A stretch of DNA of 64,000 nucleotides, taken from contig NZ_CP014545.1 of assembly GCF_001586275.1 (NCBI RefSeq), positions 186,001 through 250,000 on the forward strand. The letters run 5' to 3'. Shown here in pieces: positions 12,025-29,158 of the stretch. Numbering within the stretch: position 1 is the first letter of the stretch; the number at the start of each line of letters is the position of its first letter. Source of the stretch: Sphingorhabdus sp. M41 (GTDB taxonomy: Bacteria; Pseudomonadota; Alphaproteobacteria; Sphingomonadales; Sphingomonadaceae). Below the pieces are notes generated by a model, which worked only from the letters and a program-made list of their open reading frames with translations, made no database searches and had not been told where the DNA came from. A program made the translations under genes and the position numbers.

Positions 12025-13173
12025 TTGTGCATGGCTTTCCCGGGAAATTCCGAAACCGGATTGCTGCTTTCCCTGCAGAAGGCGGTGGTCGAAAAATCAG
12101 GCTGGACCGAGTTCCTGGCGGGACTCGCAACGATGGCACACGCTCGGTTCGCGGCAATGATCATTGAAATTCCGGGTTCTTCCGACGCGGCATATATCGT
12201 CAATGCGATGCCAAATGGTCAGCCGGTATCAATTTCCTCCGCTGCGCTGGCTATAATTCTTTCCGACCGTCTACGCCCGGAACGGATATATTCTGCCGCC
12301 GAGCTGAAAGATATCGACTCAGGCGCCGGAATGGATGCGGCGCTCGCCAAACTTGGCACGCCCGCAGTGCGAGCGATGCGCGCCGTTGTTTCCGAAAGTC
12401 TTTCAATCAAGGTGGGAGTCTTCGGTTCGGTCGAATTTGGAGCAGCGGACGGCGCTATTTTGAGAAGATTGTTCCCCTATCTCAGGTCATGCGCGCGCGC
12501 TGCGGTGATAGTCGAGCGCGAACGATTTCATGCGTCCGTAACTGCCAAATTGGCTCGCAAAACCGGCCTCGGCTGGTTCTTGCTTGATCGTTCCGGCGTC
12601 ATTGTGGAGTCAGTATCTGACCGGCCAGACAGATTGCCCGGCTTTAGCATTCTCTCTGGCATGCAAGGTGAGCGGTTCGCTTTCGCAGATCGCGCAACCG
12701 AAACGGCGCTAGCGGATATCCTTGATCGCTGTGCAACCGGAACCGCTGAACGTTCAGCGGCCATTGAAATAAGTTCCGGTCCGATGTTGCATATGCGTGT
12801 TTCACCATTTCCAGCATCGGATTATGCTTGGCTCTGTAACGCTGTTGCGCTTGTGACATTGCACGGAGAGAGCCAGATGACGGCGGACGGTTGCGGGTTG
12901 CTGGTTGACCTGTTCGGTCTGCTCCCCAGCGAAGCGCGGCTTGCCAAAGAGTTGGCTGGCGGGAAATCCTTGGTCGAGGCCGCTGACCATATGGGCCTTA
13001 CGATCGAAACCGTGCGCAACTATTCAAAAAAGATTTTCGCCAAGACCGGAACTACGGGACAGGTGGATCTCGTCAGGTCGATCCTGGCCAATGGTCTGGC
13101 TGAACTTGAAGCTCCTTCACTCTGTCTGCCGAGTTCCGGAAGAGAAGATTCGGTCAGCCCATCCGAAATCTAG
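12025..13173 (+). CDS. LuxR-type helix-turn-helix transcriptional regulator
   Basis: A 382-residue protein with a C-terminal LuxR/GerE DNA-binding domain (about residues 297-360). It contains LLPSEARLAKELAGGKSL and a recognition-helix region around GLTIETVRNYSKKIFAKTG. The long N-terminal part has no motif I can name and may be a PAS/GAF-like sensor. TTG at 12025 is preferred because GGAGGG stands 8 bases upstream; the ATG at 12031 would be 14 bases away. It is divergent from cysD, so control of sulfate activation is possible but unproven. It ends 96 bases before a convergent pentapeptide-repeat gene; nothing notable was seen in that gap. Confidence 0.8.
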   Translation: MCMAFPGNSETGLLLSLQKAVVEKSGWTEFLAGLATMAHARFAAMIIEIPGSSDAAYIVNAMPNGQPVSISSAALAIILSDRLRPERIYSAAELKDIDSGAGMDAALAKLGTPAVRAMRAVVSESLSIKVGVFGSVEFGAADGAILRRLFPYLRSCARAAVIVERERFHASVTAKLARKTGLGWFLLDRSGVIVESVSDRPDRLPGFSILSGMQGERFAFADRATETALADILDRCATGTAERSAAIEISSGPMLHMRVSPFPASDYAWLCNAVALVTLHGESQMTADGCGLLVDLFGLLPSEARLAKELAGGKSLVEAADHMGLTIETVRNYSKKIFAKTGTTGQVDLVRSILANGLAELEAPSLCLPSSGREDSVSPSEI

Positions 13174-14122: not shown

Positions 14123-15763
14123 TCAATCATTGGGGCTGCTGTCGACTGGACAGGCTTTTAATGGAATCATGTTCAGAAACCACTGCTCGCCGTTGCACCG
14201 CCGCTGTTTCATTATCTGTTCTTGCAGTTCGAACATAGCCGCCGCCTGACCATGTCCCACGACTGGAGTTGCGGCGAAGCGCATCCGTGCCTGGTCATTG
14301 GCATATGGAGGCCATGCAGGACCTGTGACGGACGAGGGAGCCCCGGTAGTGGCAAAGCTTGCCCAATAGTCGATCATCGTCGTCGCAAGGGCATCATCGG
14401 CGGGATCGACCGGTATAGGCCAGTTGGCAGGCAATCGTTTGTCCGGGCCGACGCGGCCAAAGGTGAAGGGCAATTCACCGGCGTGAAAACTGCACAGGTC
14501 GCGCTCCTTCGCCGCAGCATAGCAATGATCGAAGATGAAGGAAAAAGCTGGCTGCCCCGCTGCGGTCTGTTGCCTGACCAGCCGCTCAATCGCCCAGCCA
14601 TAGACCGCGTCGCGTGTTGCATCGAGCTGGCTTTCTGCAATATTCGAGGCGGGATAGAGCTGCAGATAGGCCGGCGCAAGATTGCCAAAACGCTTAGTGA
14701 TTTCGATTTCATAGGCGTCAGGCTCATTGGGTGCAGCGGGAATCAGCAGCCGTTGTGAACGGATTTCGCCGCTGTTGAGTCCGGCCAGGATCGGCACCTG
14801 CGCTTGCTCGCTGCGGTCGAAGGTTTCGACGACTTGCGCAGGCAATATCTTGCCATCGACCGTGCCTTGTGCCGGGAAGCGGGCTTGCCAGGCCTTCACC
14901 ATCAGCGCGTCGGGGTCGAGCGCCCGCAGAACGCCGATATCTTCGCCGAGCGCCGCGCCAATTGTCTCGGCAGCGGGCATGCCGAAGGCGCTTTCGCGCA
15001 GGAGCGGCACTGCGCGGATATTCGCACTCTGGATGATAGCCTTTGCAAACAGACCGTGGGCAGGCGGGCTGGACAGTAGATAGGTGATACTGAGCGCACC
15101 GGCCGATTCACCCATCACCGTGACATTCTGTGCATCGCCGCCAAATGCGCCGATATTGTCTTTCACCCACGCCAGCGCTGCAATCTGGTCAAGCAAGCCA
15201 TAGTTGCCGGAAATGCCATCCGGCGATTCAGCACTGAGTCCAGGGTGTGCCAGCCAGCCGAAGACCCCGAGCCGATAGTTGATCGAAACAAACACAATCC
15301 CGCGCTTCGCATATTCGCTTCCGTCGTACATCGGGCTGGCGCTTGATCCGCGTTGCAGCGCGCCACCGTGGATCCAGACGACCACAGGAGCGCCATTTGC
15401 GTTATTCGGCGACCAGATGTTTAGTGTCAGGCAATCTTCACTGGTCGCTGCCAGTTCCTCGAAATAGACACTGCTGGCGGGGTAGGGCGGTTGGATACAA
15501 CTGGCCCCGAATGCGCTTGCGTCAAAAGTGCCCTGCCATTTTGCAGGCGGAGCGGGTGGCTGCCAGCGTCGGTCGCCAACCGGCGGCAAGGCATAGGCTA
15601 TGCCCTTGAATATGCCGATATCATCCGTGATTGTTCCGGTAAGCCGACCCTGGGGGATCTGGACTTCAGGCCGATCTGGCATTTTCGATGAAGATTGCGT
15701 GCCGCTTATGGCAGCCGCCAAGATTCCGATATATGCTGCGATCCGAAGAGCGATTTTGCTCAT
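14123..15763 (-). CDS. secreted type-B carboxylesterase (first paralogue)
   Basis: A 546-residue alpha/beta hydrolase of the cholinesterase/type-B carboxylesterase family. The start at 15763 has AGGAGAGG upstream and gives a Sec signal peptide (about residues 1-25). The nucleophile is Ser220 in GESAG; IHGG provides the oxyanion hole, SEDCLTLNIW is the family signature, NSGEIR probably carries the acid and FHAGELPF the histidine. It should hydrolyse an ester in the periplasm or outside the cell. It is divergent from the M28-like gene and shares a dyad operator with it. A second esterase at 22876-24540 has the same architecture. Confidence 0.9.
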   Translation of the reverse strand: MSKIALRIAAYIGILAAAISGTQSSSKMPDRPEVQIPQGRLTGTITDDIGIFKGIAYALPPVGDRRWQPPAPPAKWQGTFDASAFGASCIQPPYPASSVYFEELAATSEDCLTLNIWSPNNANGAPVVVWIHGGALQRGSSASPMYDGSEYAKRGIVFVSINYRLGVFGWLAHPGLSAESPDGISGNYGLLDQIAALAWVKDNIGAFGGDAQNVTVMGESAGALSITYLLSSPPAHGLFAKAIIQSANIRAVPLLRESAFGMPAAETIGAALGEDIGVLRALDPDALMVKAWQARFPAQGTVDGKILPAQVVETFDRSEQAQVPILAGLNSGEIRSQRLLIPAAPNEPDAYEIEITKRFGNLAPAYLQLYPASNIAESQLDATRDAVYGWAIERLVRQQTAAGQPAFSFIFDHCYAAAKERDLCSFHAGELPFTFGRVGPDKRLPANWPIPVDPADDALATTMIDYWASFATTGAPSSVTGPAWPPYANDQARMRFAATPVVGHGQAAAMFELQEQIMKQRRCNGEQWFLNMIPLKACPVDSSPND

Positions 15764-15818
15764 TCCATTCCTCTCCTGCCACTGCCGCAATGCTTGCCAT
15801 TGTCCGGCGCCAACTATA

Positions 15819-15838
15819 CACTCACTCGCTAGTGAATA
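15819..15838. promoter_or_regulatory. candidate TetR operator, site 1
   Basis: CACTCAC-N6-GTGAATA (15819-15825 and 15832-15838), an inverted repeat with 5 of 7 positions complementary. It lies 55 bases upstream of the minus-strand esterase and 74 bases upstream of the plus-strand M28-like gene. Nearly the same arms and the same 6-base spacing recur at 20477-20496, and a related site lies at 26898-26921. Confidence 0.55.
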
Positions 15839-15912
15839 TCAAGTGCACTTCCTTCACGACCGACATAATGTCGGCAAGGAAACAAGCGGCAGAAACACCG
15901 GGAGATGATGAT

Positions 15913-17217
15913 ATGAGCGGACCGACGAGACGCGATGTGCTGGCAGGTGCGAGCAGCCTGCCCCTGACTGTCGCGATACCGACAGCGGCGCAGGCCACAG
16001 CCACCACTAAGCCCAATTCGATTGCAGACGATCTCGCCAGATATATCGGATTTGGGAGCAAGCAGTCGGGCAGCGAGGGTGATGCAGCCTGCGGCCACTG
16101 GCTTGCCGGCGAGCTTGAGGAGGCCGGATTCGTGGTCGAGAAACCCGTGCTTTCAGTGCCATATTTCGATCAAGCCATTTGCGAAATCACCATCGACGGC
16201 GCGCGCGCAACACTCTGGCCGCAACCAATTGTCATTCCGACGCCCGCCAGCGGCGTGTCCGGACCGCTGGTTCGCGTCGATGGAGCGGGAAGGGCGGATG
16301 CGCCGCTCGGCGGGGCAATTGCACTGGTCGATCTACCCTATGGCCGTTGGTCTTCTGCCTTTTCGAAATCCGTGCGCGGGCCCGTCGATGCGGCCTTTGC
16401 CGGCGGTGCGAAGGCCGTAGTCATTGTCACCAACGGTCCTACCGGCAAGGTGATCGCACTCAATGCCGATGGTCGCGCACCGATGTTTGCAGGACCCGTA
16501 GGCCTGCTTGCGCCTGCCGATGCGGCAGCCTTCCTGAGCGCTGCGACGACACATGCCACGGCGACAGCGACGCTGACGGGACAGGCCGGTCGGCGACCGG
16601 CGTTCAATGTGATCGGCCGGATGGATCGGCAAAAAGGGAAATGGATCGTCGTCTCGACACCGCGCTCCGGCTGGTACGGTTGCGCGGCAGAACGCGGTGG
16701 CGGCATTGCCGCATGGCTCGACCTTGCGCGCAACATACCCAGAATGCTGCCCGATCACGATATCGCCTTCCTTTGCAACAGCGGCCATGAATATGAGAAT
16801 CTGGGCGCCGAGGAATCGCTGAAGGCGACAGCGCCCAAGCCCGAAGAGACCCACTTCTGGTTACATCTCGGAGCCAATCTTGCCGCCCGCGACTGGCACG
16901 AGGGGCTGTTTGGCCTGTCACCGCTGCCGGGCACAGATTCGCAGCGCTATCTGGTTGTCAGCCCGCCACTGCTCGACCCGGCACGGCGCCTGTTCAAGGG
17001 ACTGGCTGGTCTCGAAGGCCCCTATCCCAGCGACAAATTATCGGCGGGCGAGCTAACCGCGATCATTGCCGCAGGCTACCCCTCGGTTGCAGGCGTGTTC
17101 GGCGTGCATCGCTTCCATCATGTCGCCGACGATGACGAGCGATGCATAGATGCGTCGAGCGTTGCCGAGACGACCGAGGCATTCCGCAATCTTCTGCTGG
17201 AAGCTGGCAAAGCCTGA
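15913..17217 (+). CDS. Tat-exported M28-like protein lacking metal ligands
   Basis: A 434-residue protein beginning with a twin-arginine signal (TRRDVLAGASSLPLTVAIP, Arg6-Arg7) ending near AQA. The start at 15913 replaces a 75-codon longer open frame because the Tat signal begins there. The middle region looks like a PA-type insert and the C-terminal half follows the M28 aminopeptidase pattern. Where M28 enzymes have HxD, DN and EE metal ligands, it reads PRSG, ERGG and HEYE. It is probably not a zinc peptidase; it may bind a ligand or have a different chemistry. It is divergent from the esterase and probably co-regulated with it. Confidence 0.75.
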   Translation: MSGPTRRDVLAGASSLPLTVAIPTAAQATATTKPNSIADDLARYIGFGSKQSGSEGDAACGHWLAGELEEAGFVVEKPVLSVPYFDQAICEITIDGARATLWPQPIVIPTPASGVSGPLVRVDGAGRADAPLGGAIALVDLPYGRWSSAFSKSVRGPVDAAFAGGAKAVVIVTNGPTGKVIALNADGRAPMFAGPVGLLAPADAAAFLSAATTHATATATLTGQAGRRPAFNVIGRMDRQKGKWIVVSTPRSGWYGCAAERGGGIAAWLDLARNIPRMLPDHDIAFLCNSGHEYENLGAEESLKATAPKPEETHFWLHLGANLAARDWHEGLFGLSPLPGTDSQRYLVVSPPLLDPARRLFKGLAGLEGPYPSDKLSAGELTAIIAAGYPSVAGVFGVHRFHHVADDDERCIDASSVAETTEAFRNLLLEAGKA

Positions 17218-17229
17218 AGGTTTGCGTTG

Positions 17230-18558
17230 TTACAGTCGGTTCGCGCGAGCCAGTGCACCGAAATGATAGGCGCTTGGCCGGGGCGTCCGTTTGAACGTCT
17301 CGCGGTCAACGGCTGCCAGTCCAAAAGTGTGGCCATAGCCCGATGTCCATTCGAAATTATCGAGCAAGGACCAGTAGAGATAGCTGCGGACAGCGATCCC
17401 TTCGTCGATACAGGCCCGGACACCATCGAGCGCCTGATCAATAAAGGCAATGCGGCGCTTGTCATCATTCACGGCCACGCCGCTTTCGGTTACGTAGATC
17501 GGCTTGCCGATGGTTCGATGCGCCCAGCGGATCGTGTTCGCCAGCGCCTGGGGGTAGAATTCATAGCCCGACATCGTCAGTTCGGCGTCCGGCGGCGGCG
17601 CGACCATGCCCTTCTCGTCGAAAACCATGCGGGTATAGCACTGCACCCCGAAGAAATCGGAGTGGCTGCGGGCCACATCGACCCAGTCGCCATAGAGCTT
17701 CCGCTCATAATGCGCGACCAGCGAAGGTGATCCTGCGGACTGAATCTCTTGGGTTGTCAACGTTATCCCAACCGGAAGATCCGGTCTTGCCGACTTGATT
17801 TCGTCATAGGCCAGTCGATGCGCCTGCTGCAGGATCGGAGTTGAAATTGCCGGATCGGAATAGGCCAAGCGCGAAAAGCGCGGCGAACCGGTGGCGCGAA
17901 CCGCAGCCTGGTTGACCGCGCGGATCTGCTTTCGGGCTTCATCCGACTGTGGGTATAGCGCCACCAGCAATCCGATATTGGCTTCGTTGAACGTAGTCAC
18001 AAGATGCATCAGCCCGCCGAGTCTTTCGGCGACAGTGCGGCAGAAGCGGGCAAACAACTGCGGCGCATCTTGTACCTCAAAGCCGCCGCGGGCAGCAAAC
18101 CAGAGCGGGGTGGTGAAATGATTCAAGGTCACAATCGGCCGCAGCCCGCGAGCGCGGCATGATTCGAGCACGCGCTTGTAATGATCAAGAGCCGCATTGG
18201 AAAAACAGCCTTCGCTGGGTTCGATCCGTGCCCATTCGACGCCCAGACGGTAGCAGTTCAAACCCAATTGCTGGGCGAGTGCGAAGTCTTCATCATAACG
18301 ATGATAGCTATCGCACGCATCACCCGAACGGTCCTTGAACAAGGTCGGCTCAAGATTTTCCGCCAGCCAGGCATCGCTGTTGACATTGTTGCCCTCGCTT
18401 TGATGGGCAGAGATTGCCGCACCCCACAAAAAGCCCGGAGGCGCACGTCGGCGAACCTTCACCGATGCCGTATTTGCCAGAAGCGTCGGAGCGGCCGCTG
18501 TGCCTGCCGCTACCTGCATCAACTCGCGCCGCCCGATCTCGAAGTCCTGATCCGCCAT
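17230..18558 (-). CDS. Tat-exported glycoside hydrolase family 1 (beta-glycosidase)
   Basis: A 442-residue GH1 enzyme. Retaining-mechanism residues are Glu192 in TFNEAN (acid/base) and Glu358 in YVTESG (nucleophile); FLWGAAISAHQSEG at the N-terminus and WSLLDNFEWTSGYG near the end are typical. The start at 18558 follows AAGGAAGGGG and reveals a Tat-like signal (Arg10-Arg11, then ELMQVAAGTAAAPTLLA), unusual because most GH1 enzymes are cytoplasmic. It lies 13 bases downstream of the MFS transporter gene and forms an operon with it. It probably removes a beta-linked sugar from the imported or extracellular compound. Confidence 0.9.
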   Translation of the reverse strand: MADQDFEIGRRELMQVAAGTAAAPTLLANTASVKVRRRAPPGFLWGAAISAHQSEGNNVNSDAWLAENLEPTLFKDRSGDACDSYHRYDEDFALAQQLGLNCYRLGVEWARIEPSEGCFSNAALDHYKRVLESCRARGLRPIVTLNHFTTPLWFAARGGFEVQDAPQLFARFCRTVAERLGGLMHLVTTFNEANIGLLVALYPQSDEARKQIRAVNQAAVRATGSPRFSRLAYSDPAISTPILQQAHRLAYDEIKSARPDLPVGITLTTQEIQSAGSPSLVAHYERKLYGDWVDVARSHSDFFGVQCYTRMVFDEKGMVAPPPDAELTMSGYEFYPQALANTIRWAHRTIGKPIYVTESGVAVNDDKRRIAFIDQALDGVRACIDEGIAVRSYLYWSLLDNFEWTSGYGHTFGLAAVDRETFKRTPRPSAYHFGALARANRL

Positions 18559-18571
18559 CACCCCTTCCTTT

Positions 18572-20239
18572 CTATGCTTCAATGTCGCGTTTATAGGTTT
18601 CCGGGAGAAACAATATTCCGACCACTGCGGTAATGCCGGCGATGACAATCGCGTACCACAGGCCCTGATAGATGCTGCCGGTCGCCGCAACCATCGCGAA
18701 GGCAACCGTCGGCATGAAGCCCCCGATCCAGCCGTTCCCGATATGATAGGGCAGCGATAGGGACGAATAGCGGATACGTGCGGGAAACAGTTCGACCAGC
18801 AACGCTGCCAGCGGCCCGTAGACCATCGTTCCCAAGGTTCCGAGCATGCAGAGGATCACGATCACCCTGAACTGGTCAATCTGGTCCGGGTCTGCGTCGG
18901 TGGGATAGCCTGCGGCTACCAACGCCCGCTGCACATCAGCTCCGAAAGCGGCAACGGCGCTATTCTTGGTGTCGCCTGAGACAAGCGCAGGGTCGGGAGC
19001 AATGATGCTCCGATCACCGATCCGGATCGACGCTATGCTGCCGATCGGCGCATCGATATTTTCATAATTTATCCCGCTCTTCGCGAGATAGGATTTTGCA
19101 ATGTCGCAGCTCGTTGTGTCGAAGGTGTTGCCACCGATAGGATCGAATTGAAACGAACATTCGGAGCCATGGGCCACGATGCTAACGGGTGCGCGTTCGA
19201 TAGCAGCCGCCATTGCCGGGTTCGCGGCATTGACCAGCGCACTGTAAAGCGGGAAATAGGCAAAAACGGCAATAACACATGCGGTCATCATGATCGGCTT
19301 GCGGCCGATCTTGTCGCTGAGCCAGCCCCAGAAAACATAGAGAGGAATCGTGATGGTGAGCGCAGTGGCGACCAGGAAGTTCGCGGTAGCACCATCGACC
19401 TTGGCGATTTTCTCAAGAAAGAAAAGCGGATAGAGATGGCCCGAGAAGCCGATGACCGCTTGTCCCGCAACCGCGCCGAAAAGCGCGATCAAAACGATCT
19501 TCAGGTTTTTCCATTTGCCAAAAGCTTCCCTGAGCGGTGCTTTGGATGTTGCGCCATGCGCTTTCATCCTCTGGAATACAGGGCTTTCGTTGAGCTGAAG
19601 GCGGATCCAGAGCGCGACCAGCAGCAGGACGATCGAGAAAAGAAACGGCAGGCGCCAACCCCAGGACAGGAAGTCATCGGCATCCAAGCTGGTCCGCAAC
19701 CCGACCACGAACATGGAAGCCAGAATAAGACCGAGCATCGCTGTTGTCTGGATGAAGCCGGTGTAAAAACCGCGTTTCCCGTTCGGTGCATGTTCGGCGA
19801 TATAGACCGCCGCACCGCCATATTCGCCACCGATCGCAAGGCCCTGCAACAATCGCAGCGCCATCAGGATAATCGGTGCCGCAATGCCGATTTGGTCATA
19901 GCTTGGCAGCAAGCCGACTGCGAAGGTCGACATACCCATGATCGCCATGGTGACGAGAAAGGTTTTCTTGCGTCCCACGATATCGCCGACCCGCCCGAAT
20001 ACCAGCGCGCCAAACGGCCGTACCGCAAAGCCCGCAGCAAAGGCCATCAGCGCGAGGATGAAGCCTGTGGTTTCGTTGACCCCCGAAAAAAACTTCGCCG
20101 AAATGACGCTGGCAAGCAGGCCGTAGAGGTAAAAATCATACCATTCAAACACCGTCCCCAGCGACGAAGCGGTGATGACGAGCTTTTCATTCTGTTTCTT
20201 GCCCACGCCGTCTGGCAAAGCTTCCGTGTCGGTAGCCAT
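18572..20239 (-). CDS. MFS transporter, metabolite:H+ symporter type
   Basis: A 555-residue major-facilitator protein of the MHS (ShiA/KgtP/ProP-like) group. It has FEWYDFYLYG in the first membrane segment, the loop motif GRVGDIVGRKKT between helices 2 and 3, and a second copy (GWLSDKIGRKP) in the C-terminal half. A roughly 100-residue hydrophilic insert with two cysteines (CSFQF and TSCD) sits in the C-terminal half, probably periplasmic. The ATG at 20239 is preceded by GGGAG and AAGGA. It is cotranscribed with the GH1 gene and probably imports a carboxylate released from the substrate. Confidence 0.9.
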   Translation of the reverse strand: MATDTEALPDGVGKKQNEKLVITASSLGTVFEWYDFYLYGLLASVISAKFFSGVNETTGFILALMAFAAGFAVRPFGALVFGRVGDIVGRKKTFLVTMAIMGMSTFAVGLLPSYDQIGIAAPIILMALRLLQGLAIGGEYGGAAVYIAEHAPNGKRGFYTGFIQTTAMLGLILASMFVVGLRTSLDADDFLSWGWRLPFLFSIVLLLVALWIRLQLNESPVFQRMKAHGATSKAPLREAFGKWKNLKIVLIALFGAVAGQAVIGFSGHLYPLFFLEKIAKVDGATANFLVATALTITIPLYVFWGWLSDKIGRKPIMMTACVIAVFAYFPLYSALVNAANPAMAAAIERAPVSIVAHGSECSFQFDPIGGNTFDTTSCDIAKSYLAKSGINYENIDAPIGSIASIRIGDRSIIAPDPALVSGDTKNSAVAAFGADVQRALVAAGYPTDADPDQIDQFRVIVILCMLGTLGTMVYGPLAALLVELFPARIRYSSLSLPYHIGNGWIGGFMPTVAFAMVAATGSIYQGLWYAIVIAGITAVVGILFLPETYKRDIEA

Positions 20240-20305
20240 ATTCCTTCTCCCATTTATCCCGGCAGCGGCGGCGGACTTCGGCCAGCTCGCTACTGCCGGG
20301 GAATA

Positions 20306-20458
20306 TCAATGCCCGGCAGTGATCGCCGGATCGACCTGTTCGATGCTCATCATTTCGCGGTTTGCTGCGGGAGCATTGTGCTGCCCTCCGAAACCGCATG
20401 CGTCAGACAATGCCCGCATCAAGCTGTTCGACCGTCCCTTCAAATATGCCTTCATCAT
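20306..20458 (-). CDS. possible small ORF between operator site 2 and the MFS gene
   Basis: A 50-codon frame starting ATG-ATG 18 bases downstream of operator site 2 and ending before the MFS start. It contains DACGFGGQHNA, which recalls the C-terminal GFGG loop of beta-ketoacyl synthases, but no other part of that fold is present. No Shine-Dalgarno sequence precedes it. It may be a remnant, a leader peptide or chance. The rest of the 313-base gap (20240-20552) holds only operator site 2 and the MFS SD. Confidence 0.2.
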   Translation of the reverse strand: MMKAYLKGRSNSLMRALSDACGFGGQHNAPAANREMMSIEQVDPAITAGH

Positions 20459-20476
20459 AGATCTTGTACTTTCAAT

Positions 20477-20496
20477 AACTCACGTGTGAGTGAATA
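20477..20496. promoter_or_regulatory. candidate TetR operator, site 2
   Basis: AACTCAC-N6-GTGAATA, differing from site 1 only in the first base of the left arm, with the same spacing. Inside it, CTCAC-GT-GTGAG is a perfect 5-bp dyad. It lies 238 bases upstream of the MFS gene and immediately downstream of the tetR stop, so it would control the MFS-GH1 operon. Confidence 0.55.
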
Positions 20497-20552
20497 AGAA
20501 GTTCATCTTGAAACTGGAACTGATCTTGTTTCTAGTCTCAGCTACCAGCCCG

Positions 20553-21272
20553 TTAACGCTGCTCGCAAATTTCCTTGAAGCCCGCCGCCATGAATCGGGC
20601 CATACGTTGTTTGACCGCAGAATAATCTTCCGACTGGCAAAGGCCGTGCGACAATTTGTCGATACGGCCCGTTCGCGCCAGCGTCAGCATCAGCGCGCCG
20701 GTTACGAAATGATAGCCCCAGAAAATATCTTCTTCAGCGGCGTCCGGCAGGGCTTTTTTCAGAATATCGATCAGGCGCAGCACGACCGGGTCGAAATATT
20801 TATCCATATATTCAGCGCCATCGGGACTATTCGATGCTTGCGCGCCGAATGCGCCGTAATTCTTCCAGCCTTCACCGCCATGGATATAGAGGTCGAGGTC
20901 GGTGTCGAGAAAGGCGTGGAGCGCGCCTTCCACGGTCGGGTTTTCCCCGGCAGCGCGGTCATAATCATCAAGCGCCTGCATCCGTTTCTCGATTGTAACC
21001 ACAGCACGCCGGGCAAACACGGCGTCGAACAGCGTCTGCTTGTCGTCGAAATAATAGTTGAGCAAAGTGTGATGGACGCCGACCTGTTTGGCCACATCCT
21101 TCAGTGTCACACCATAAAAGCCGTGCTTGGAAAAAAGGAGTTCGGCAATATCGAGTATCTGTTCCATCATCTCGGCCCGTTGTTCGGCCTTGGAAACTTT
21201 CTTCACACTGGTTTTTGCTGTCGATGCCAAACTCATTTCCTTCTGCACTATATCCGTCGCGACCGGGATCAC
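20553..21272 (-). CDS. TetR-family transcriptional regulator
   Basis: A TetR repressor of up to 239 residues. The N-terminal helix-turn-helix reads GFYGVTLKDVAKQVGVHHTLLNYYFDDK; the remainder is the variable ligand-binding domain. The start is uncertain: GTG at 21272 lies within a 13-bp tandem repeat, while the ATG at 21236 has AAGGA only 1 base away. It is the last gene of the TonB receptor-esterase-ligase operon, so operator site 3 would make it autoregulated. It is the obvious candidate to bind sites 1-3. The inducer is probably the imported compound or its CoA ester (inference). Confidence 0.88.
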   Translation of the reverse strand: MIPVATDIVQKEMSLASTAKTSVKKVSKAEQRAEMMEQILDIAELLFSKHGFYGVTLKDVAKQVGVHHTLLNYYFDDKQTLFDAVFARRAVVTIEKRMQALDDYDRAAGENPTVEGALHAFLDTDLDLYIHGGEGWKNYGAFGAQASNSPDGAEYMDKYFDPVVLRLIDILKKALPDAAEEDIFWGYHFVTGALMLTLARTGRIDKLSHGLCQSEDYSAVKQRMARFMAAGFKEICEQR

Positions 21273-21290
21273 CCTACGGGATCACCCTAC
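21265..21290. repeat. 13-bp perfect tandem duplication
   Basis: GGGATCACCCTAC occurs twice head to tail (21265-21277 and 21278-21290). The ligase stop codon lies in one copy and the possible GTG start of tetR in the other, so the duplication sets the distance between the two genes. Confidence 0.9.
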
Positions 21291-22879
21291 ACGTGTCCGT
21301 AATCTGCCCGCAATTGTATTTTATTGATCTTTCCGGTGGCCGCGAGCGGCATCCCGTCCAGACGGATGATTGCATCAGGAATCCACCAGGACGCGACATT
21401 CTCGTGCAGCGGCGCGAGCAATTCTTCGTCGCTGATCGAATTATCGCAGGTTTCGACCAGCAGAATCGGCCGTTCGCCCCATTTGGGGTCGCTCCGGCCT
21501 ATCACCGCGGCAAGCGACACCTGGGGCAGGGCACCGACCAGTGATTCAATTTCAGCAGGGTTGATCCATTCACCGCCCGATTTGATCAGGTCCTTGGCGC
21601 GACCGGTGATCATCAGATTGCCGTCAACGTCAATGCGCGCGAGGTCACCGGTGTCGAACCAGCCCTCCGCGTCGGTCGCGGGCTTGTCATCGCCGAAATA
21701 GCGTTTGACGACACTCGGTCCGCGCACGCGCAGATGGCCCTCTGGTCCGCGTTGCTCGTCAAGCGGGTGCCCCTCGCTGTCGGTGAGGAGCAGGTCAATG
21801 CCGATAGCAGGCCGTCCCGAAAGGGCCGCCAGCCGCCCCGAATCTCCCGCTACTGCAGCGGTGCCGAGCGGCGACAGTTCGGTCATGCCCCAGCTGGTCT
21901 GCACCTCGACACCGAGCCGCTGCTCGATCCGTTCCATCAGCGCCGGTGGCATCGAAGCGCCTCCCACAAGTATCCGTTCGAGCGATGGTACATCACCGCC
22001 CTCGGTCTCGAGATGTTCGACCAGGCCGAGCCACACGGTCGGTACGCCGACGCCCAGAGTGACGCCTTCGGACCGGATCAGAGCGGCCAGATGCGCTCCA
22101 GTGCTATTGCTGCCGGGTAACACAAGCTTGCCGCCAACCGCGGGGACCGCGAACGGCAGGCCCCAGGCGTTGGCATGGAACATGGGAACGACCGCAAGCA
22201 CCGCATCATTCGCGCGAACCCCCATCACGTCGGCCTGAAGCTGCCGCATCGTATGCAGATAACAACCGCGGTGGGTATAGGTAACTCCCTTGGGTGCGCC
22301 GGTTGTACCCGAAGTGAAGCAAAGTCCGGAGGGTGTGTTTTCGTTGAACTGTCCCCATTCGATGTCCGGCGATGATGCCTCAGCCATTGCTGTTGCCAGC
22401 ACGCCGACATTGATCGAATCATCCGCTGCTTCGATCGTCGCTCCATCATCGTCGAGCAGCAATATCTGTTCTATGGCGCCACCCTCCGCAGCAGTCGCCC
22501 GGGCAAGCGGCAGCAGATCCCGGCTGGCCAGCAGCAGGCGCGCTCCGGACTGCGCCAGCATGGCTCCGAGACTCTTGGCGGTGAGTCGCGGGTTCAGCGT
22601 ATGACACACCGCACCCATGCCGATTATCCCGTACCAGCTTTCAAAATGCCCCTGACTGTTCCAGGCGAGCGTCGCGACATGGTCGCCCTTGCCCACGCCC
22701 AGCCGATGCAACGCACCCGATACGGCGCGCGCGCGATCATGGATAGCGGCATAGCTGATCCGTTCGACAGTACCGTCCGGCGCTGCTGAAACCACCTCGG
22801 CGAGGGGGTGCCATTTTGCAGCGTGGGAAAGAAACTTGTCGAGTGTCAGTGCATAGCCTTGCATTGAACCGTCGATCAT
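21287..22879 (-). CDS. AMP-dependent acyl-CoA synthetase/ligase
   Basis: A 530-residue ANL-superfamily enzyme that activates a carboxylic acid to its CoA thioester through an acyl-adenylate. Core motifs are the P-loop SGTTGAPKGVTYTHRG, SWGMTELSP, the DTGDLARI hinge region, GRAKDLIKSGGEWI, and the terminal catalytic Lys in TGKINKIQLR. The start at 22879 follows GAGGGG (5 bases) and overlaps the esterase stop by ATGA. In context it probably activates the acid released by the esterases. Medium-chain, aryl and terpenoid acids are all possible. Confidence 0.93.
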   Translation of the reverse strand: MIDGSMQGYALTLDKFLSHAAKWHPLAEVVSAAPDGTVERISYAAIHDRARAVSGALHRLGVGKGDHVATLAWNSQGHFESWYGIIGMGAVCHTLNPRLTAKSLGAMLAQSGARLLLASRDLLPLARATAAEGGAIEQILLLDDDGATIEAADDSINVGVLATAMAEASSPDIEWGQFNENTPSGLCFTSGTTGAPKGVTYTHRGCYLHTMRQLQADVMGVRANDAVLAVVPMFHANAWGLPFAVPAVGGKLVLPGSNSTGAHLAALIRSEGVTLGVGVPTVWLGLVEHLETEGGDVPSLERILVGGASMPPALMERIEQRLGVEVQTSWGMTELSPLGTAAVAGDSGRLAALSGRPAIGIDLLLTDSEGHPLDEQRGPEGHLRVRGPSVVKRYFGDDKPATDAEGWFDTGDLARIDVDGNLMITGRAKDLIKSGGEWINPAEIESLVGALPQVSLAAVIGRSDPKWGERPILLVETCDNSISDEELLAPLHENVASWWIPDAIIRLDGMPLAATGKINKIQLRADYGHV

Positions 22880-24540
22880 TGGCACCCCTCGGCTTTGGGT
22901 GGTAGTGGTGGCGAAATGACGCCGATGTTCCAGTTCCATGCGGTATCACCCGCAGCGCGCCGGCGGCACACGACCGCTTCGTGCAGCGCTGCTGTTCCGG
23001 GGAAAAGATTATGACCCAGACGCGGCTTGTCGGCAAAATGCATGAACGCCTTGTTCTGGGAATAGGACAGCCAGTCCGGCTGGCCCTTGGCTCGTGGTTG
23101 CCCGCTTCGGGCGAAGCTTGCCCAATAATCACCCATCGCGGCGATCAACTTGCGCTCTGACAATTTGTTCGGGATTTTCGGCCATAGGGGCGGTGTCTTG
23201 CCGGCAGTATCGAATACGAAAGGCAGTTCTGCAGCATGGAAGGCATGCAAATCCCATTCCTGGGTTGCCGGGTAGCCATGGTCGAAAAGATAGAGATAGG
23301 CGGGTATGCCGAGCGCCGCCTGATTTGATACCAGCCGCTCGGACGTCCAGCCGTACATGGCATCGCGCGTCGCGGCGAGCATGCTTTCTTCCTTGTTCTT
23401 GGCAGGGTAGCGGGACAGGTAAGCGTCCGCGAACTCGCCGTAATTGGTCCGGATAGCCGCTTCATATGCGGCGGCATTATCAGGTGCCTTGGGCAGCAGG
23501 AAACGCAGGGACCGGATTTCGCCCGCATTGAAGCCGGCGAGTATTGGCACCGGTGCCTGTTCGTTGCGGTCGAAAGTCTCAACCAGCTGGCGCGGCACGG
23601 TCTTGCCATCGATGACAGGGAAAGGGAAATATCCGGCCGCAGGTGCCTTTTCGGCAATCTCTTCTGCGGGCATTGCCCGGAGTGCGACAAGATCGTCAGT
23701 ACCCAGCTTGGTCGTCAAGTCTATGCCCTGCTCTTCGGCTGGTACCATGCCATTGCGTTTTTCGCGCAGCGCTGGTGCCGAGACCATATAGGCGCTCTGG
23801 GCGATCGCCTTGTCGAACAGCCCGCGCGCGTCCGGCGCCGCCATCAGATACATGACGCTGAGCGCGCCCGCAGACTCGCCCGCGATCGTCACATTGGCTG
23901 CATCGCCGCCGAACGCGCCAATGTTTTGCTTCACCCACTGGAGTGCCGCGATCTGGTCGAGCAGGCCATAATTACCCGATACGCCGTCTGACGATTCTGC
24001 GCTGAGCTCCGGGTGCGCGAGATAGCCGAGCGCCCCGAGACGGTAGTTGATCGACACGACGACCATGCCGCGAGCCGCAAGCGCGCTGCCGTCATAAAGC
24101 GGATCGCCGCCCGATCCCGTGGTCAGCGATCCACCATGTATCCAGACGAAGACCGGCGCGCGCGTGGCATTGTCCGGTGCCCAGATGTTGAGCGAGAGAC
24201 AATCCTCGCTCATCTCCGGCAGGTCCCATGCGTAGATGCTGGGTCCTCGCGGCTTTGGTTGCATGCATGCCGCACCAAATTTGGTGGCATCGCGTACGTC
24301 CTGCCAGTCAGCTGCCGGTTGGGGCGGCGTCCAGCGCAGCTTGCCAACCGGTGGTGCAGCATAAGGAATGCCCTTGAAGATGCGGACCCCTTTTTCCTCG
24401 CTTCCCTGCACCTTGCCTGCCGGCGCATCGACGACCGGACCATCGGCGGCTGCCGCCGGTACCGGGACCATGACCGCCAGCAGGAGAGCCAGATGGGTCA
24501 GGCCCCGGAACGTCGCATCTTTCATGTTACGATGCCCCAT
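22876..24540 (-). CDS. secreted type-B carboxylesterase (second paralogue)
   Basis: A 554-residue type-B carboxylesterase with a Sec signal peptide (hydrophobic THLALLLAVMVPVPAAAA). Ser223 in GESAG is the nucleophile; SEDCLSLNIW, IHGG, NAGEIR and FHAAELPF complete the family pattern. ATG at 24540 overlaps the TonB receptor stop as TGATG; an internal ATG at 24525 with a weak GGGG upstream is an alternative. It is a clear paralogue of the esterase at 14123-15763 and lies in one operon with the receptor, ligase and regulator, so it probably acts on the substrate recognised by the receptor. Confidence 0.92.
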   Translation of the reverse strand: MGHRNMKDATFRGLTHLALLLAVMVPVPAAAADGPVVDAPAGKVQGSEEKGVRIFKGIPYAAPPVGKLRWTPPQPAADWQDVRDATKFGAACMQPKPRGPSIYAWDLPEMSEDCLSLNIWAPDNATRAPVFVWIHGGSLTTGSGGDPLYDGSALAARGMVVVSINYRLGALGYLAHPELSAESSDGVSGNYGLLDQIAALQWVKQNIGAFGGDAANVTIAGESAGALSVMYLMAAPDARGLFDKAIAQSAYMVSAPALREKRNGMVPAEEQGIDLTTKLGTDDLVALRAMPAEEIAEKAPAAGYFPFPVIDGKTVPRQLVETFDRNEQAPVPILAGFNAGEIRSLRFLLPKAPDNAAAYEAAIRTNYGEFADAYLSRYPAKNKEESMLAATRDAMYGWTSERLVSNQAALGIPAYLYLFDHGYPATQEWDLHAFHAAELPFVFDTAGKTPPLWPKIPNKLSERKLIAAMGDYWASFARSGQPRAKGQPDWLSYSQNKAFMHFADKPRLGHNLFPGTAALHEAVVCRRRAAGDTAWNWNIGVISPPLPPKAEGCQ

Positions 24541-26819
24541 CAGAAGCGGTAGTTCGCACGAATGCCCGCCGTGCGCGGCCGCAGCCTTGCATAACGGCCA
24601 TCGAGGAAGGCTTCCGGATGGATATAGGTGATCGAGGAATCATCGAACACATTCTCGACATAGGCGGTCAGGTCCAGCGACCCCAGCTTGACCCCGGCGA
24701 AAAGATTCACGTTGGTCCATGCCTCGGTGAAATCATAAGTCGGGCTCACAGCATTAGGATTGCCTGGTACGTTCGGGAACTGGTTCGGGAACGATCCGAC
24801 GTGCGACGCATTGAGCGCAGCGAAGGCGGTGTTTCCGCCACCGACCGCAAAGTCGTAGCGCAATGTGCCCGATCCCTGAAAATGCGGCGACGCAAGCCGG
24901 ACACCCGGAACCGCGCCAGATATCGCCGCTTCGACCGCCGAAAGTTTTGTCACCTTGGCTTCGTTGTACGACCCGTTGAGGGCGAGGCTGAGGCCTTCGA
25001 CCGGCCGCGCCAGAAACTCGAATTCAATGCCATAGCTCTCGGCACCGCCGATGTTGGTCGCGAACTGGATCGAATCCGAGACGCGGTTCGCCTGAACCTG
25101 GATGTTTTTCCAGTCGATATAATAACCCGCAAGATTCGCGGTCAGGTCGCCGCCCAGCCAGCTGCCTTTGACGCCGACCTCGTAGTTGGTGACGCTGTCC
25201 GAATTTGCGCCGTCGGGAATGACGAGATCATTCGGATTGATGGTACTGACCAGGCCGGCCCGGGCGTTGACAACCGGCGTCCGGAAACCGGTCGATATGG
25301 TTGCATAGGTGGTCAGATCCGAATTTGGCTTCCACGAGACGCTGGCCTTGTAGGACAGGCGGTCGTCCTTGACCTTCAACCCTTCCTCGTAGCCAATCGG
25401 TGTGATTGTCACCGGCACATTCTGAAAGCCGAGAAAGGCGAGGGTAAGATAATTGCTGTTATAGCCACCGCCCCGGGTGAAGCTTTGCACCTCTGTGCTG
25501 CCGTAGCGCAGGCCACCAGTGACCCAGAAATTGTCGCTGAAACGGTAGGTCAATTCGCCGAAACCGGCAATCTCGCTCTGGTCGGTATAGGCATTGAACC
25601 GCTGATAATATTCATCCGGCAGTCCGGTCAGCCCGCGTGCGGCGAGATATTCGGGCGTGGAGCGATAGGCAAAGTCCACGGCGCGCCGTTTGTCGTAATA
25701 GAAGAAGCCAGCGACCCACTCGATCGGACCCGACGTGCGCGAGACCAGGCGGGTTTCCTGAACAAACAGGTCGTCATAGCCAAAGGCGTCCAGTGCGAAC
25801 GGGAAGGCCTGCGCGAAAGTTCCGGCCAGATCAACATAGAAGGATGCGTCATAGGTCGACAATGTTGTCGAGCTGATCAGTTCAGCGAAGTCGAACTCAT
25901 AATTGACGGTCGCGTTGAAGTTGGTGAGTTCCCCCTGGAACAGGTCGGGCCGGTCGGAAAGACGCGTGAACTCGCCGAGGTTCGGATTGGTCAGTCCCGA
26001 ATCCGCGGGCTGGCTGTTTTCATAGGAGGCCAGCAGCTTCACCTGCATCCGGTCGCTCGGCTGCATCAGCAGGATTGCGCGCCCGCCATAGGCTTCCAGA
26101 CTGTTGGAATTGTTCACGCCGGTGCCGATATTGTCGACCCAGCCATCCTCGTTGCGGTAATAGCCAGTGACGCGAAGCCCCAATTCGTCCGTCATGATCG
26201 GTATGTTGATCATCGCATTATAGCGCTGGCGTATCGAATCGGATCCGGTCAGGCCGATGTCGGCGCTGGCGGAGGCCTGGAATTCATCCAGGTCCGGACT
26301 GCGCGTAATGATGCGCATCGCACCGGCGAGCGAGTTCGAACCGAACAATGTACCCTGCGGCCCGCGCAGAAATTCGACGCGCTCTACGTCGTACAGATTG
26401 GGATCGAGAATGGTCGAATTGCCGTTTGCCGAAATTGGCAGTTCGTCGACGTAGATGGCAACCGCGCTCTGCAGCCCGGCGCTATAGCCGTTGGTGTTGA
26501 TCCCGCGGGCGGTGAAATTATTGAAATTCTGGGTCGGCCGATTGACGACGATGCCGGGCGTATTCTGCGCAACACCTTCAAAGCCGACGATACCAAGGTC
26601 GTCCAGATCCGCTTGATCATAAGCAGTGACGCTGATGGGAATATCCTGGATCCGTTCGCTCCGGCGAGTGGCGGTAACGATAATTTCCTTGTCACCGCGC
26701 TTCTGGTCCTGCGCTGTCTCGTCGGTGGGCTGCGATGTTTCGCCGGACTGTGCCACAGCAGAAACGGGTTGCGCGAGCAAGGCGACCGCAGACACGGACG
26801 CAAAAAATGTAACTTTCAT
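24540..26819 (-). CDS. TonB-dependent outer-membrane receptor
   Basis: A 759-residue receptor: Sec signal peptide (cleavage near AVAQS), a plug domain opening with EIIVTATRRSERIQDIPISV and continuing through VERVEFLRGPQGTLFGSN, then a long beta-barrel ending in a terminal aromatic (NYRF). The plug sequence is of the type common in sphingomonad receptors for small organic substrates rather than siderophores, though specificity cannot be read directly. A strong SD (GGAGGAGAGG) precedes the ATG. It is the first gene of a four-gene operon and lies 78 bases downstream of operator site 3. Confidence 0.95.
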   Translation of the reverse strand: MKVTFFASVSAVALLAQPVSAVAQSGETSQPTDETAQDQKRGDKEIIVTATRRSERIQDIPISVTAYDQADLDDLGIVGFEGVAQNTPGIVVNRPTQNFNNFTARGINTNGYSAGLQSAVAIYVDELPISANGNSTILDPNLYDVERVEFLRGPQGTLFGSNSLAGAMRIITRSPDLDEFQASASADIGLTGSDSIRQRYNAMINIPIMTDELGLRVTGYYRNEDGWVDNIGTGVNNSNSLEAYGGRAILLMQPSDRMQVKLLASYENSQPADSGLTNPNLGEFTRLSDRPDLFQGELTNFNATVNYEFDFAELISSTTLSTYDASFYVDLAGTFAQAFPFALDAFGYDDLFVQETRLVSRTSGPIEWVAGFFYYDKRRAVDFAYRSTPEYLAARGLTGLPDEYYQRFNAYTDQSEIAGFGELTYRFSDNFWVTGGLRYGSTEVQSFTRGGGYNSNYLTLAFLGFQNVPVTITPIGYEEGLKVKDDRLSYKASVSWKPNSDLTTYATISTGFRTPVVNARAGLVSTINPNDLVIPDGANSDSVTNYEVGVKGSWLGGDLTANLAGYYIDWKNIQVQANRVSDSIQFATNIGGAESYGIEFEFLARPVEGLSLALNGSYNEAKVTKLSAVEAAISGAVPGVRLASPHFQGSGTLRYDFAVGGGNTAFAALNASHVGSFPNQFPNVPGNPNAVSPTYDFTEAWTNVNLFAGVKLGSLDLTAYVENVFDDSSITYIHPEAFLDGRYARLRPRTAGIRANYRF

Positions 26820-26897
26820 TTGAACCTCTCCTCCACGTCAACGCTCTTTGTCGCTGACTTGGGCAGGGTTTATGTCGACATCATTTTGGAATGTCAA

Positions 26898-26921
26898 CAC
26901 TCACTATCACGTGCGTGAATA
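26898..26921. promoter_or_regulatory. candidate TetR operator, site 3
   Basis: CACTCAC (26898-26904) is followed after 6 bases by GTGCGTG (6 of 7 complementary) and, after 10 bases, by GTGAATA (26915-26921), the arm seen in sites 1 and 2. It sits 78 bases upstream of the TonB receptor gene and would control the whole receptor-esterase-ligase-tetR operon. Confidence 0.5.
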
Positions 26922-27277: not shown

Positions 27278-28402
27278 CTAGATATCGCCGATCATCTCGG
27301 CCAGAGTGGCCAGGCATTCGCGGGCGAGCAAATTGCAGCGTTCAGGGGACCAGCCCTGCTCGGCATCGGGCAGATCGCGATTATCCTTGAACGGCATTTC
27401 CAACGTCATTGCCACGGCGCCGAAACGTTCGGCCAGCTGATTGGTCGACATCGACAGATTGGCTTTGCCCTTGGCCGCGGTCGGATAGCCAAGCTTGGTC
27501 TGGAAATCCGGCGTGCGCTGGGCGAGGCGATCACGGTAGCCGTGATATTTTTCCAGCTGCGCATCGGTGATCGACGGAATGCCTTCGAAACCGGCGATAA
27601 AAACCGCAGGAATCGCTTCGTCTCCGTGCACATCCATGGCGAAAGCAACGCCGCTTTCGTCCATAGCATTGCGAACGCATAGCACTTCGGGAGATTTTTC
27701 GGCGCTGGGTTCATGCCACTCCCGATTGAGATTGGTGCCGGCGAAATTGGTTCGTAAATGCCCTCTGCACGAACCATCTGGGTTCATATTGGGCACAATA
27801 TGGAACCGGCATTTCTCCAGCAGCAGCCGTGCATGAGGGTCTGCCGGATCGGTGAGCATTTCCAGCGCGCCTTCCATCCACCATTCGGCCATGCTTTCGC
27901 CCGGATGCTGGCGGGCGTAGAGCCAGACCTGCTTGTCGCCGCTTCCCAATTCCACGCAGTCTATCGGCTGGCCTTCCAGGCTATGGCCAAGCGTGCGCAC
28001 GCTGACGCCCTCAAATCCGGCGGTTTCGGCGATCAGATCATGGTGCCGTTCGATACTATAAGGTGCGAAATAGGCAAACCAGATGATATTGCTGCTGGCG
28101 GTGTAGCGGATCGACAAGATACCGCTTTGCTCGTCGTAGCTGCTCGCCGCGCGACCCCAATATTCCCGGTCTTCGCTGACGCAGGCGTTATAGTCGGGCC
28201 ATCCCTGCGGATAGGCGGAGTCTTTCAGCCCGCCAATGTTCAATTCCAGTTCGTCGCCAATCTCGCAGGCCACCCGAAAATGGAACCACTGGAAAAACTC
28301 GCTGTCCTTGTCCTTGCGGATCGAGAGCGTTGCAGTCTTGCCTTCGATGGCATGAACTTCGATATTGCCGCTATCGAATGCGCTGGTGATTTTTATGCTC
28401 AT
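27278..28402 (-). CDS. M14-family zinc carboxypeptidase, cytosolic (CCP-like)
   Basis: A 374-residue M14 metallocarboxypeptidase. It begins with a beta-rich N-terminal domain (about residues 1-125) typical of the cytosolic carboxypeptidase/Nna1 branch. The catalytic domain follows: ARQHPGES (zinc HxxE), NMNPDG, the substrate-binding NLNREW, the third zinc ligand in DVHGDE and the general-base Glu in TLEMPF. There is no signal peptide, so it is predicted cytoplasmic. It overlaps the upstream lipoprotein gene by ATGA. In eukaryotes this branch trims glutamates from protein tails; the bacterial substrate is unknown. Confidence 0.9.
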
Positions 28403-29007
28403 TTCACCCTGATAGTGGTTCCGGACTCTCCGGGGAAGTCCTTGAATAGGGCTGCGGCCAATTTTGCTGCTGCCAGGCCGGGCTGCGATGCCGGGGAGCC
28501 TTGTTTGGCCTCGACCGACGCGCGGCCTTCCCAGACGACGGTACCGTCATCACGTTTGGTAATGCGGACCGATAATTCGGTGACGATCTTGTCTTTTGGC
28601 TTGCCGCCAAGATTGATGCCAATGCCCAATCCGACGCCGGATCCATAGCTGCCAGTGCTGCCGCCGACTCCGACCGATATCGGTGATCGTGTTCCGCCAG
28701 CGCTCAACACCGCTCTCTCAATCGTGTAGCGGACGAGATATTTGCTGTCTTTGGCCGCCTCGCGCGCTTCCGTGAAGCCCACGCGCTGCAATTCGTGCAA
28801 TATAGCAGCGGAATAGGTCGCATATTCGATGCTGCGGCTATGGCCTTCATCGGTCAAATTGGCTTCGATAACGACACTGCCCGGCACAATCGCGGCAACC
28901 TGAGCATTGTGAAAACGGGTGACGTCCACCGGCGGCGTCATCGCCACACATCCTGACAATAGCGATCCTGCCATTGCCATCGCCACAAATGATTTCAAGC
29001 CGGTCAT
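28399..29007 (-). CDS. DUF4136-like lipoprotein
   Basis: A 202-residue predicted lipoprotein with a type II signal ending in LLSGC. The body, with a glycine-rich [20 protein letters not shown] segment and the [17 protein letters not shown] strand, resembles DUF4136 proteins of unknown role. The ATG at 29007 has AAGGAG 8 bases upstream and is preferred to a GTG at 29016. It overlaps the M14 gene by ATGA, so the two are coupled, although a functional link is not obvious. Confidence 0.75.
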
Positions 29008-29158
29008 GATACGCACTCCTTACTTTGCCCCGCGCCATATTAGAGCATAATCGCGGCGACTGCGGTAAAAAATTGCGTCCGCAGGTCAGCCTGTTTAACC
29101 GAATGGAGAGGCCAATGCACTAAACGGCAGATATTGGTTAGTTACTAGGGATCAGGAC

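What the first reader, a model, noticed from the sequence alone, without database searches (positions are those of the whole stretch)
14123..26921. Three similar dyads define a putative TetR regulon
Sites at 15819-15838 (CACTCAC-N6-GTGAATA), 20477-20496 (AACTCAC-N6-GTGAATA) and 26898-26921 (same left arm; GTGCGTG at N6 and GTGAATA at N10) precede three separate transcription units. These are esterase/M28-like (divergent), MFS-GH1, and TonB receptor-esterase-ligase-tetR. I did not notice this arm pair elsewhere in the window. tetR is the last gene of the unit behind site 3, so the regulon would be autoregulated and each unit would have one site.
Basis: partly seen in the sequence, partly recalled or inferred. 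Interest (0 to 1): 0.7.

Follow-up and report, generated by a model that had tools for sequence, protein, structure and literature searches.

The report
TetR regulon with a conserved operator
Three matching DNA switches probably control a small set of genes that look able to import and break down an ester compound, and the same switch sits beside the same kind of regulator gene in other bacteria, so this is a real but fairly ordinary regulatory circuit.

Summary
A matrix made from 80 relatives, window left out, scores them 31.8, 32.2 and 28.5; the next independent place in the window scores 1.5. In the 3.34-Mb genome nothing else lies within 2 mismatches of the motif pattern. Sites occur in 78 of 80 loci encoding this TetR, mostly before the receptor operon, an SDR gene, the esterase/M28 pair or an ABC transporter. 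Of 199 family genomes, 11 of 18 with tetR have near-exact sites beside it; 10 of 181 without it have one stray hit each. The regulator is nearest NicR2 and PsrA but lacks PsrA's operator. Most likely it is a ligand-released repressor that here also controls its own gene and governs uptake and hydrolysis of an unknown ester. Binding, ligand and sign of control are untested; the receptor-promoter site abuts the -35 box and could act positively.

The parts
15815..15838 (.). Operator 1 (24 bp), between divergent esterase 1 and M28-like genes; on the esterase side it fills the spacer between TTGATA and a TATAGT-like -10
   Evidence: matrix score 31.8; 14 loci have a site between the same divergent genes, TTGA directly before it in 11 of 14
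20473..20496 (.). Operator 2 (24 bp), between the end of tetR and the MFS-GH1 unit, 233 bp before the MFS start codon
   Evidence: matrix score 32.2; in relatives a site stands after tetR before an SDR gene or before MFS; also in 3 of 3 fetched loci of the same genus, scores 24.2 to 31.7
26898..26921 (.). Operator 3 (24 bp), directly upstream of the -35 box of the receptor-esterase-ligase-tetR operon
   Evidence: matrix score 28.5; TTGAC follows the site directly in 63 of 65 receptor promoters, the 2 exceptions having a receptor of only 25-26% identity
26869..26897 (-). Putative promoter of the receptor operon: TTGACA, 17 bp, CATAAA
   Evidence: read; -35 conserved, -10 weakly conserved; no start site was measured
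20553..21272 (-). tetR, the regulator; last gene of the receptor operon, single copy
   Evidence: PF00440 44.6 bits and PF17939 120 bits; one strong match in the genome, the next 38% over 50 residues
21287..22939 (-). Acyl-CoA ligase (longest reading; a start near 22864 is possible)
   Evidence: PF00501 235.7 bits; nearest solved chains 6ihk/6ijb (AMP-binding domain protein) and 1ult fatty-acid-CoA ligase
22876..24540 (-). Esterase 2, type-B carboxylesterase
   Evidence: PF00135 362 bits; among the nearest solved chains 8wdm, p-nitrobenzyl esterase, fumonisin B1 esterase 8s6d
24540..26819 (-). TonB-dependent receptor
   Evidence: PF00593 and PF07715
18572..20239 (-). MFS transporter resembling metabolite/H+ symporters
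   Evidence: TIGR00883 345.9 bits, below its cut-off of 443.45
17230..18561 (-). GH1 glycosidase with a Tat-like start
   Evidence: PF00232 208 bits; Tat-like motif read by eye, not tested
15913..17217 (+). M28-fold protein with a Tat-like start
   Evidence: PF01546 20.2 bits, below its cut-off of 24.6; the model of mean pLDDT 68.4 matches M28 aminopeptidases
14123..15763 (-). Esterase 1, type-B carboxylesterase
   Evidence: PF00135 325.8 bits

Best explanation
The TetR encoded at 20553-21272 binds the 24-bp palindrome at three places and controls four transcription units: receptor-esterase 2-ligase-tetR, MFS-GH1, and the divergent esterase 1 and M28-like genes. Without ligand it most likely represses them. 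At the esterase 1 promoter the operator fills the spacer between -35 and -10; at the receptor promoter it abuts the -35 box and would hinder sigma. An ester taken up by the receptor would be cut by the esterases, the freed acid moved by the MFS carrier and activated by the ligase, and the acid or its CoA thioester would release the repressor. Because tetR is in the receptor operon, the circuit would here be a negative autoregulatory loop. Shown here: the sites, their conservation and their link to tetR; promoter positions are read from sequence. Inferred: binding, sign of control, ligand and substrate.
For: A gapped-dyad count on the intergenic DNA of 80 tetR loci, with no motif given, returned TCACT-N9-GTGAA first: 61 of 80 loci, 0 when the same DNA is read backwards. 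160 sites in 78 of 80 loci. The window sites score 28.5-32.2 with a matrix made without them. In 6 of 6 loci where only TetR of 12 window proteins matched, sites persist. In 199 family genomes the exact pattern is in 4, all tetR-positive (hypergeometric 4.8e-5); at up to 1 mismatch in 11 of 18 positive genomes, all near tetR, against 10 of 181 negative genomes. In the helix-turn-helix stretch GVHHTLLNYYF, 10 of 11 residues are invariant in 40 aligned sequences (window and 39 of the 80 loci). Sequence and fold are nearest NicR2 and PsrA; PsrA and its relative Smlt2053 are tied to beta-oxidation and fatty acids (PMC10304680, passages). Some relatives have thiolase, acyl-CoA dehydrogenase and 3-hydroxyacyl-CoA dehydrogenase genes near the locus.
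Against: No binding or expression data. The receptor-promoter operator lies at about -59 to -36 of the putative start, a place also used by activators. All 80 loci were fetched with this TetR, and some tetR-positive family genomes are the same genomes as loci used for the matrix (G014 and L063, G195 and L033, G012 and L032 by coordinates or contig length), so only the tetR-negative side of that test is independent; there 10 of 181 genomes had a near-match, against 5 genomes for the reversed control. Of 16 positive genomes with a TetR of 65% identity or more, G062 has only a doubtful site (11.2; its reversed control 8.2) and G006 a modest one (14.4). L025 and L060 have no site; both contigs end before the expected receptor promoter, but the place after tetR also lacks one. 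In L056, L079, L081 and L082 no site precedes tetR. The beta-oxidation genes in L063 stand on the other strand beside another TetR gene and may be a separate cluster. GH1 and M28-like genes do not fit neatly into a fatty-ester pathway.
Confidence: 0.73

Rival explanations
1. Dual action: TetR represses esterase 1 (operator in the spacer) and the MFS unit, but activates, or both represses and activates, the receptor operon from the site just upstream of its -35 box.
For: TTGAC follows the site directly in 63 of 65 receptor promoters, the 2 exceptions having a different receptor. PsrA, a relative, activates rpoS in Pseudomonas fluorescens SBW25 (about 6-fold lower without it) from a site predicted 50 to 29 bp upstream of a base about 12 bp before the start (PMC11838912, passages).
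Against: A repressor touching the -35 box explains the same fixed spacing; the -10 is only weakly conserved; no start site is mapped. In another strain the PsrA site at rpoS is given at -427 to -416 (PMC3510223, passages), so position is not a firm guide.
Confidence: 0.2
2. Another regulator binds the sites and tetR is only a neighbour.
For: No binding test exists; a gene with a weak, below-cut-off LuxR-type match (GerE 19.5 bits) lies at 12025-13173; the SDR gene follows tetR in many relatives too.
Against: In 6 of 6 loci where only TetR of 12 window proteins matched, sites remain. Four paralogue places of 46-55% identity (L103, L104, L107, L108) show no site of 10 or more, best 8.6. Of 181 family genomes without tetR, 0 have the exact pattern.
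Confidence: 0.06
3. Chance or general repeats without regulatory role.
Against: Scores far above random sequence and sites in 78 of 80 loci while most flanking columns are not conserved.
Confidence: 0.01

Closest known systems
PsrA (Pseudomonas; Smlt2053 and XAC2014 in xanthomonads)
   Same: TetR protein with related sequence and fold (NF053516 69.8 bits; 2fbq); autoregulation; beta-oxidation genes nearby (PMC10304680, passages)
   Different: Operator (G/C)AAAC-N2-4-GTTT(G/C) (same passages); no AAAC-N2-4-GTTT lies in the three promoters here. Far below the NCBIfam PsrA cut-off of 300 bits.
NicR2 (nicotine degradation regulator)
   Same: Nearest solved structure by sequence (E 4.9e-18) and by fold
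   Different: 22-25% identity in the fold alignment; the genes at the sites are not nicotine genes by family names. NicR2's operator was not found in any call.
EdcR (estradiol degradation, Caenibius tardaugens)
   Same: TetR repressor of a sphingomonad catabolic cluster with palindromic operators proposed at several promoters
   Different: C-terminal domain TetR_C_11 and operator TnnCnnTACnAnTnGTAnnGnnA (PMC8700777, passages), both unlike this one
Fumonisin degradation cluster (FumD esterase; cluster layout recalled, not from a call)
   Same: Its esterase is a solved relative of esterase 2 (8s6d, E 7.7e-76); receptor plus transporter layout (recalled)
   Different: Ligase, GH1 and this TetR are not part of it as I recall; the similarity is at family level only

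Membership tests
TetR family regulator | N-terminal TetR_N helix-turn-helix | tested here: met
   PF00440 44.6 bits, cut-off 24
TetR family regulator | All-helical fold like solved TetR proteins | tested here: met
   AlphaFold model pLDDT 80.1, helices only, best PDB matches NicR2 and PsrA
TetR family regulator | Binds a palindromic operator at its own and neighbouring promoters | tested here: inconclusive
   Conserved palindromes are present; binding itself cannot be tested here
TetR_C_30 subgroup (PF17939) | C-terminal domain model match | tested here: met
   120 bits, cut-off 26.3
PsrA | NCBIfam PsrA model (NF053516) at its cut-off | tested here: not met
   69.8 bits against 300
PsrA | (G/C)AAAC-N2-4-GTTT(G/C) operator at its promoters | tested here: not met
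   AAAC-N2-4-GTTT gives 4 window hits, 1.6 expected, none in the three promoters
NicR2 | Nicotine pathway target genes | tested here: not met
   By family names the genes at the sites are receptor, esterases, ligase, MFS, GH1 and M28-like; nicotine genes were not searched for as such
Ligand-released repressor | Inducer lifts binding | not testable with these tools
   needs EMSA with candidate acids and CoA thioesters

The most novel reading that the evidence does not exclude
One TetR that reaches the cut-off of no NCBIfam subgroup model listed for it uses a 24-bp palindrome as a geometry-coded switch: it represses where the operator fills the promoter spacer (esterase 1) and activates where it abuts the -35 box (receptor operon). 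The whole regulon moves between bacterial classes as an ester-catabolism cassette whose uptake step is swapped (TonB receptor or ABC transporter) while operator and regulator stay constant.
Probability: 0.15. Interest if true: 0.55.

Novelty: new member of a known kind. Interest (0 to 1): 0.4.

Why it matters
It gives a regulator found in Alpha- and Gammaproteobacteria a predicted operator and a predicted gene set, so its ligand and the ester it serves can be tested directly. It could also serve as an inducible switch in sphingomonads. The case shows that comparing operators across loci can settle a regulon guess made from three sites. In itself it is one more local TetR circuit.

Tried and rejected
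A first dyad count over whole loci returned mainly repeats that looked like shared coding sequence; restricting it to intergenic DNA solved this. The first gene caller gave many wrong-strand or missing genes in some loci and was replaced by one trained on tblastn-supported genes; it still clips starts and in the window calls only part of the M28 gene, so targets marked '?' are uncertain. The intergenic DNA came from the first caller. The 2-mismatch family scan hits 121 of 199 genomes and its listing was cut, so it is not used.

A PsrA-type operator was looked for and is not in the three promoters. A scan of viral contigs with the TetR found no relative. A moved SDR gene is not supported: the best relative in the genome is 55% identical at 3077024 and no pattern hit or 21 lies near it. 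One Pfam query (L026:11900-12100) was badly aimed and gave nothing. Searches for a paper on this regulon: searches returned none; some searches listed 20 (of 25), 1 and 8 papers whose titles and abstract starts concern other systems, of which I saw passages of three (PMC8700777, PMC10304680, PMC3510223); one search was swamped by unrelated papers. Most subscription papers are not held, so this is weak evidence of absence.

Changed on checking: confidence in the best explanation lowered from 0.85 to 0.73, because autoregulation is not general, the positive side of the family test overlaps the matrix loci, and the odds had summed to more than 1. The receptor-operator position was mended from -60..-37 to -59..-36.

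Full report
Observation. The three sites are at the stated places. The TetR protein (20553-21272) found 222 relatives in genome contigs, of which the best 80 were kept (69-94% identity). A count of gapped dyads in their intergenic DNA, with no motif given, put TCACT-N9-GTGAA first: 61 of 80 loci, 0 in the same DNA read backwards. A symmetric 24-bp matrix from these loci, the window left out, has the consensus TATTCACTCACTAGTGAGTGAATA and scores the window sites 31.8, 32.2 and 28.5; the next independent place in the window scores 1.5. Over the relatives, 190 positions score above 8 and 175 above 10; in reversed DNA (relatives and window) 3 and 0. In 200 random sequences the maximum was 17.96.

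Genome-wide. In the own genome ACTCAC-N6-GTGAAT at up to 1 mismatch hits sites 1 and 2 and two other places. TTCACTMNCNNGNGNGTGAATA at up to 2 mismatches hits only the three sites; at 3 there are five other places, and the reversed control has 8 hits in all. TetR is single-copy: the next match is 38% over 50 residues.

Conservation and targets. At score above 8 there are 160 sites in 78 of 80 loci. L025 and L060 have none: both contigs end before the expected receptor promoter, but the place after tetR lacks a site too. 65 sites scoring above 20 lie before a TonB receptor gene, 52 before an SDR gene, 51 of them within 65 bp of the called start, 14 between esterase 1 and M28 as here, 6 before an ABC-transporter binding protein; the rest are before MFS, a second kind of MFS, M28, ligase, tetR or uncalled genes. 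In the window no SDR stands between tetR and MFS and the operator lies 233 bp before the MFS start; in L006 and L013 MFS likewise follows at 197 and 243 bp. I infer loss of the SDR gene. In six loci (L056, L072, L077, L079, L081, L082) only TetR of 12 window proteins matched by tblastn at 45% identity over 150 residues, and all six keep one or two sites. In L072, L076, L078 and L084 a site lies before tetR; in L056, L079, L081 and L082 the only site lies after it, before the ABC genes.

Presence and absence. Of 199 family genomes (own included), 18 hold the TetR at E up to 1e-60. At up to 1 mismatch it is in 21: 11 of 18 tetR-positive, every hit within about 10 kb of tetR, and 10 of 181 tetR-negative, one hit each; the reversed control hits 5 genomes; in the own genome it finds sites 1 and 2 only. 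Some positive genomes are also matrix loci (G014 and L063, G195 and L033, G012 and L032), so the negative side is the independent one. Of the 7 positive genomes without such a hit, G012, G110, G184 and G006 have matrix sites of 14 to 29 near tetR, G062 a doubtful 11.2 (control 8.2), and G081 and G085, whose TetR is 46-47% identical, none of 10 or more; nor have second copies of 49-55% in G012 and G110 (a fifth paralogue, in G155, was not looked at apart). So the operator follows TetRs of about 65% identity and more, not the paralogues tested. In the genus 4 of 32 genomes have the TetR, so the locus is accessory; the other three have a site after tetR (24.2-31.7).

Anatomy. At the receptor promoter TTGAC follows the operator directly in 63 of 65 loci; the two exceptions, L078 and L084, have a receptor of only 25-26% identity. 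A -10 is weakly conserved, best at 17 bp in 44 of 63; in the window it reads TTGACA-N17-CATAAA, which puts the operator at about -59 to -36 and outside the transcript, against an RNA element. At esterase 1 the operator sits between TTGATA and a TATAGT-like box 18 bp on, with TTGA before the site in 11 of 14 relatives, a usual place for a repressor. Start sites are read, not measured.

Regulator. PF00440 and PF17939 match above their cut-offs. The nearest solved proteins are NicR2 and PsrA, by sequence and by fold (model pLDDT 80.1). It is not PsrA: 69.8 bits against 300, and the PsrA operator is absent from the three promoters. In GVHHTLLNYYF 10 of 11 residues are invariant in 40 sequences (window and 39 of the 80 loci), as a fixed operator would require.

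Function. A receptor, two type-B carboxylesterases, an acyl-CoA ligase, an MFS like metabolite/H+ symporters, a GH1 and an M28-fold protein suggest import of an ester or conjugate, hydrolysis and CoA activation. Near the locus some relatives have SDR, thiolase, acyl-CoA dehydrogenase and 3-hydroxyacyl-CoA dehydrogenase genes, though in L063 these stand beside another TetR gene. The substrate is not identified. The likeliest ligand is the acid or its CoA thioester, by analogy with PsrA (PMC10304680, passages).

Sign of control. Repression is most likely; activation of the receptor operon is not excluded, since PsrA activates rpoS from an upstream site (PMC11838912, passages; in another strain the site is given at -427 to -416, PMC3510223, passages).

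Verdict. A real, conserved TetR regulon whose operator differs from those of the two regulators whose operators I could read (PsrA, EdcR); a new member of a known kind.

Noticed in passing
window 15913-17217 (+): M28-fold protein: 18 aligned sequences (window and 17 relatives) keep an invariant PRSGW where, as I recall, M28 peptidases have the metal-binding HxD, and HEY where they have EE. It may have lost its metals, like the transferrin receptor that it also matches in fold. Not tested by superposition; the model has pLDDT 68.4.
   Followed up: partly
window 17230-18561 (-): GH1 glycosidase with a Tat-like start (GRRELMQ, read by eye), so perhaps exported; nearest solved chain 6ier.
   Followed up: no
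L045, L053, L056, L079, L081, L082: The same operator stands before a branched-chain-amino-acid-type ABC transporter next to this tetR, and no receptor match was called in these loci.
   Followed up: partly
L066:2056-2079: A second TetR copy of 70% identity in the same locus has its own site upstream (score 19.9).
   Followed up: no
L006 and window 27278-29016: The M14 carboxypeptidase and DUF4136-labelled lipoprotein genes flank the cassette in both genomes but at opposite ends of it, as if it had inserted or flipped independently.
   Followed up: no
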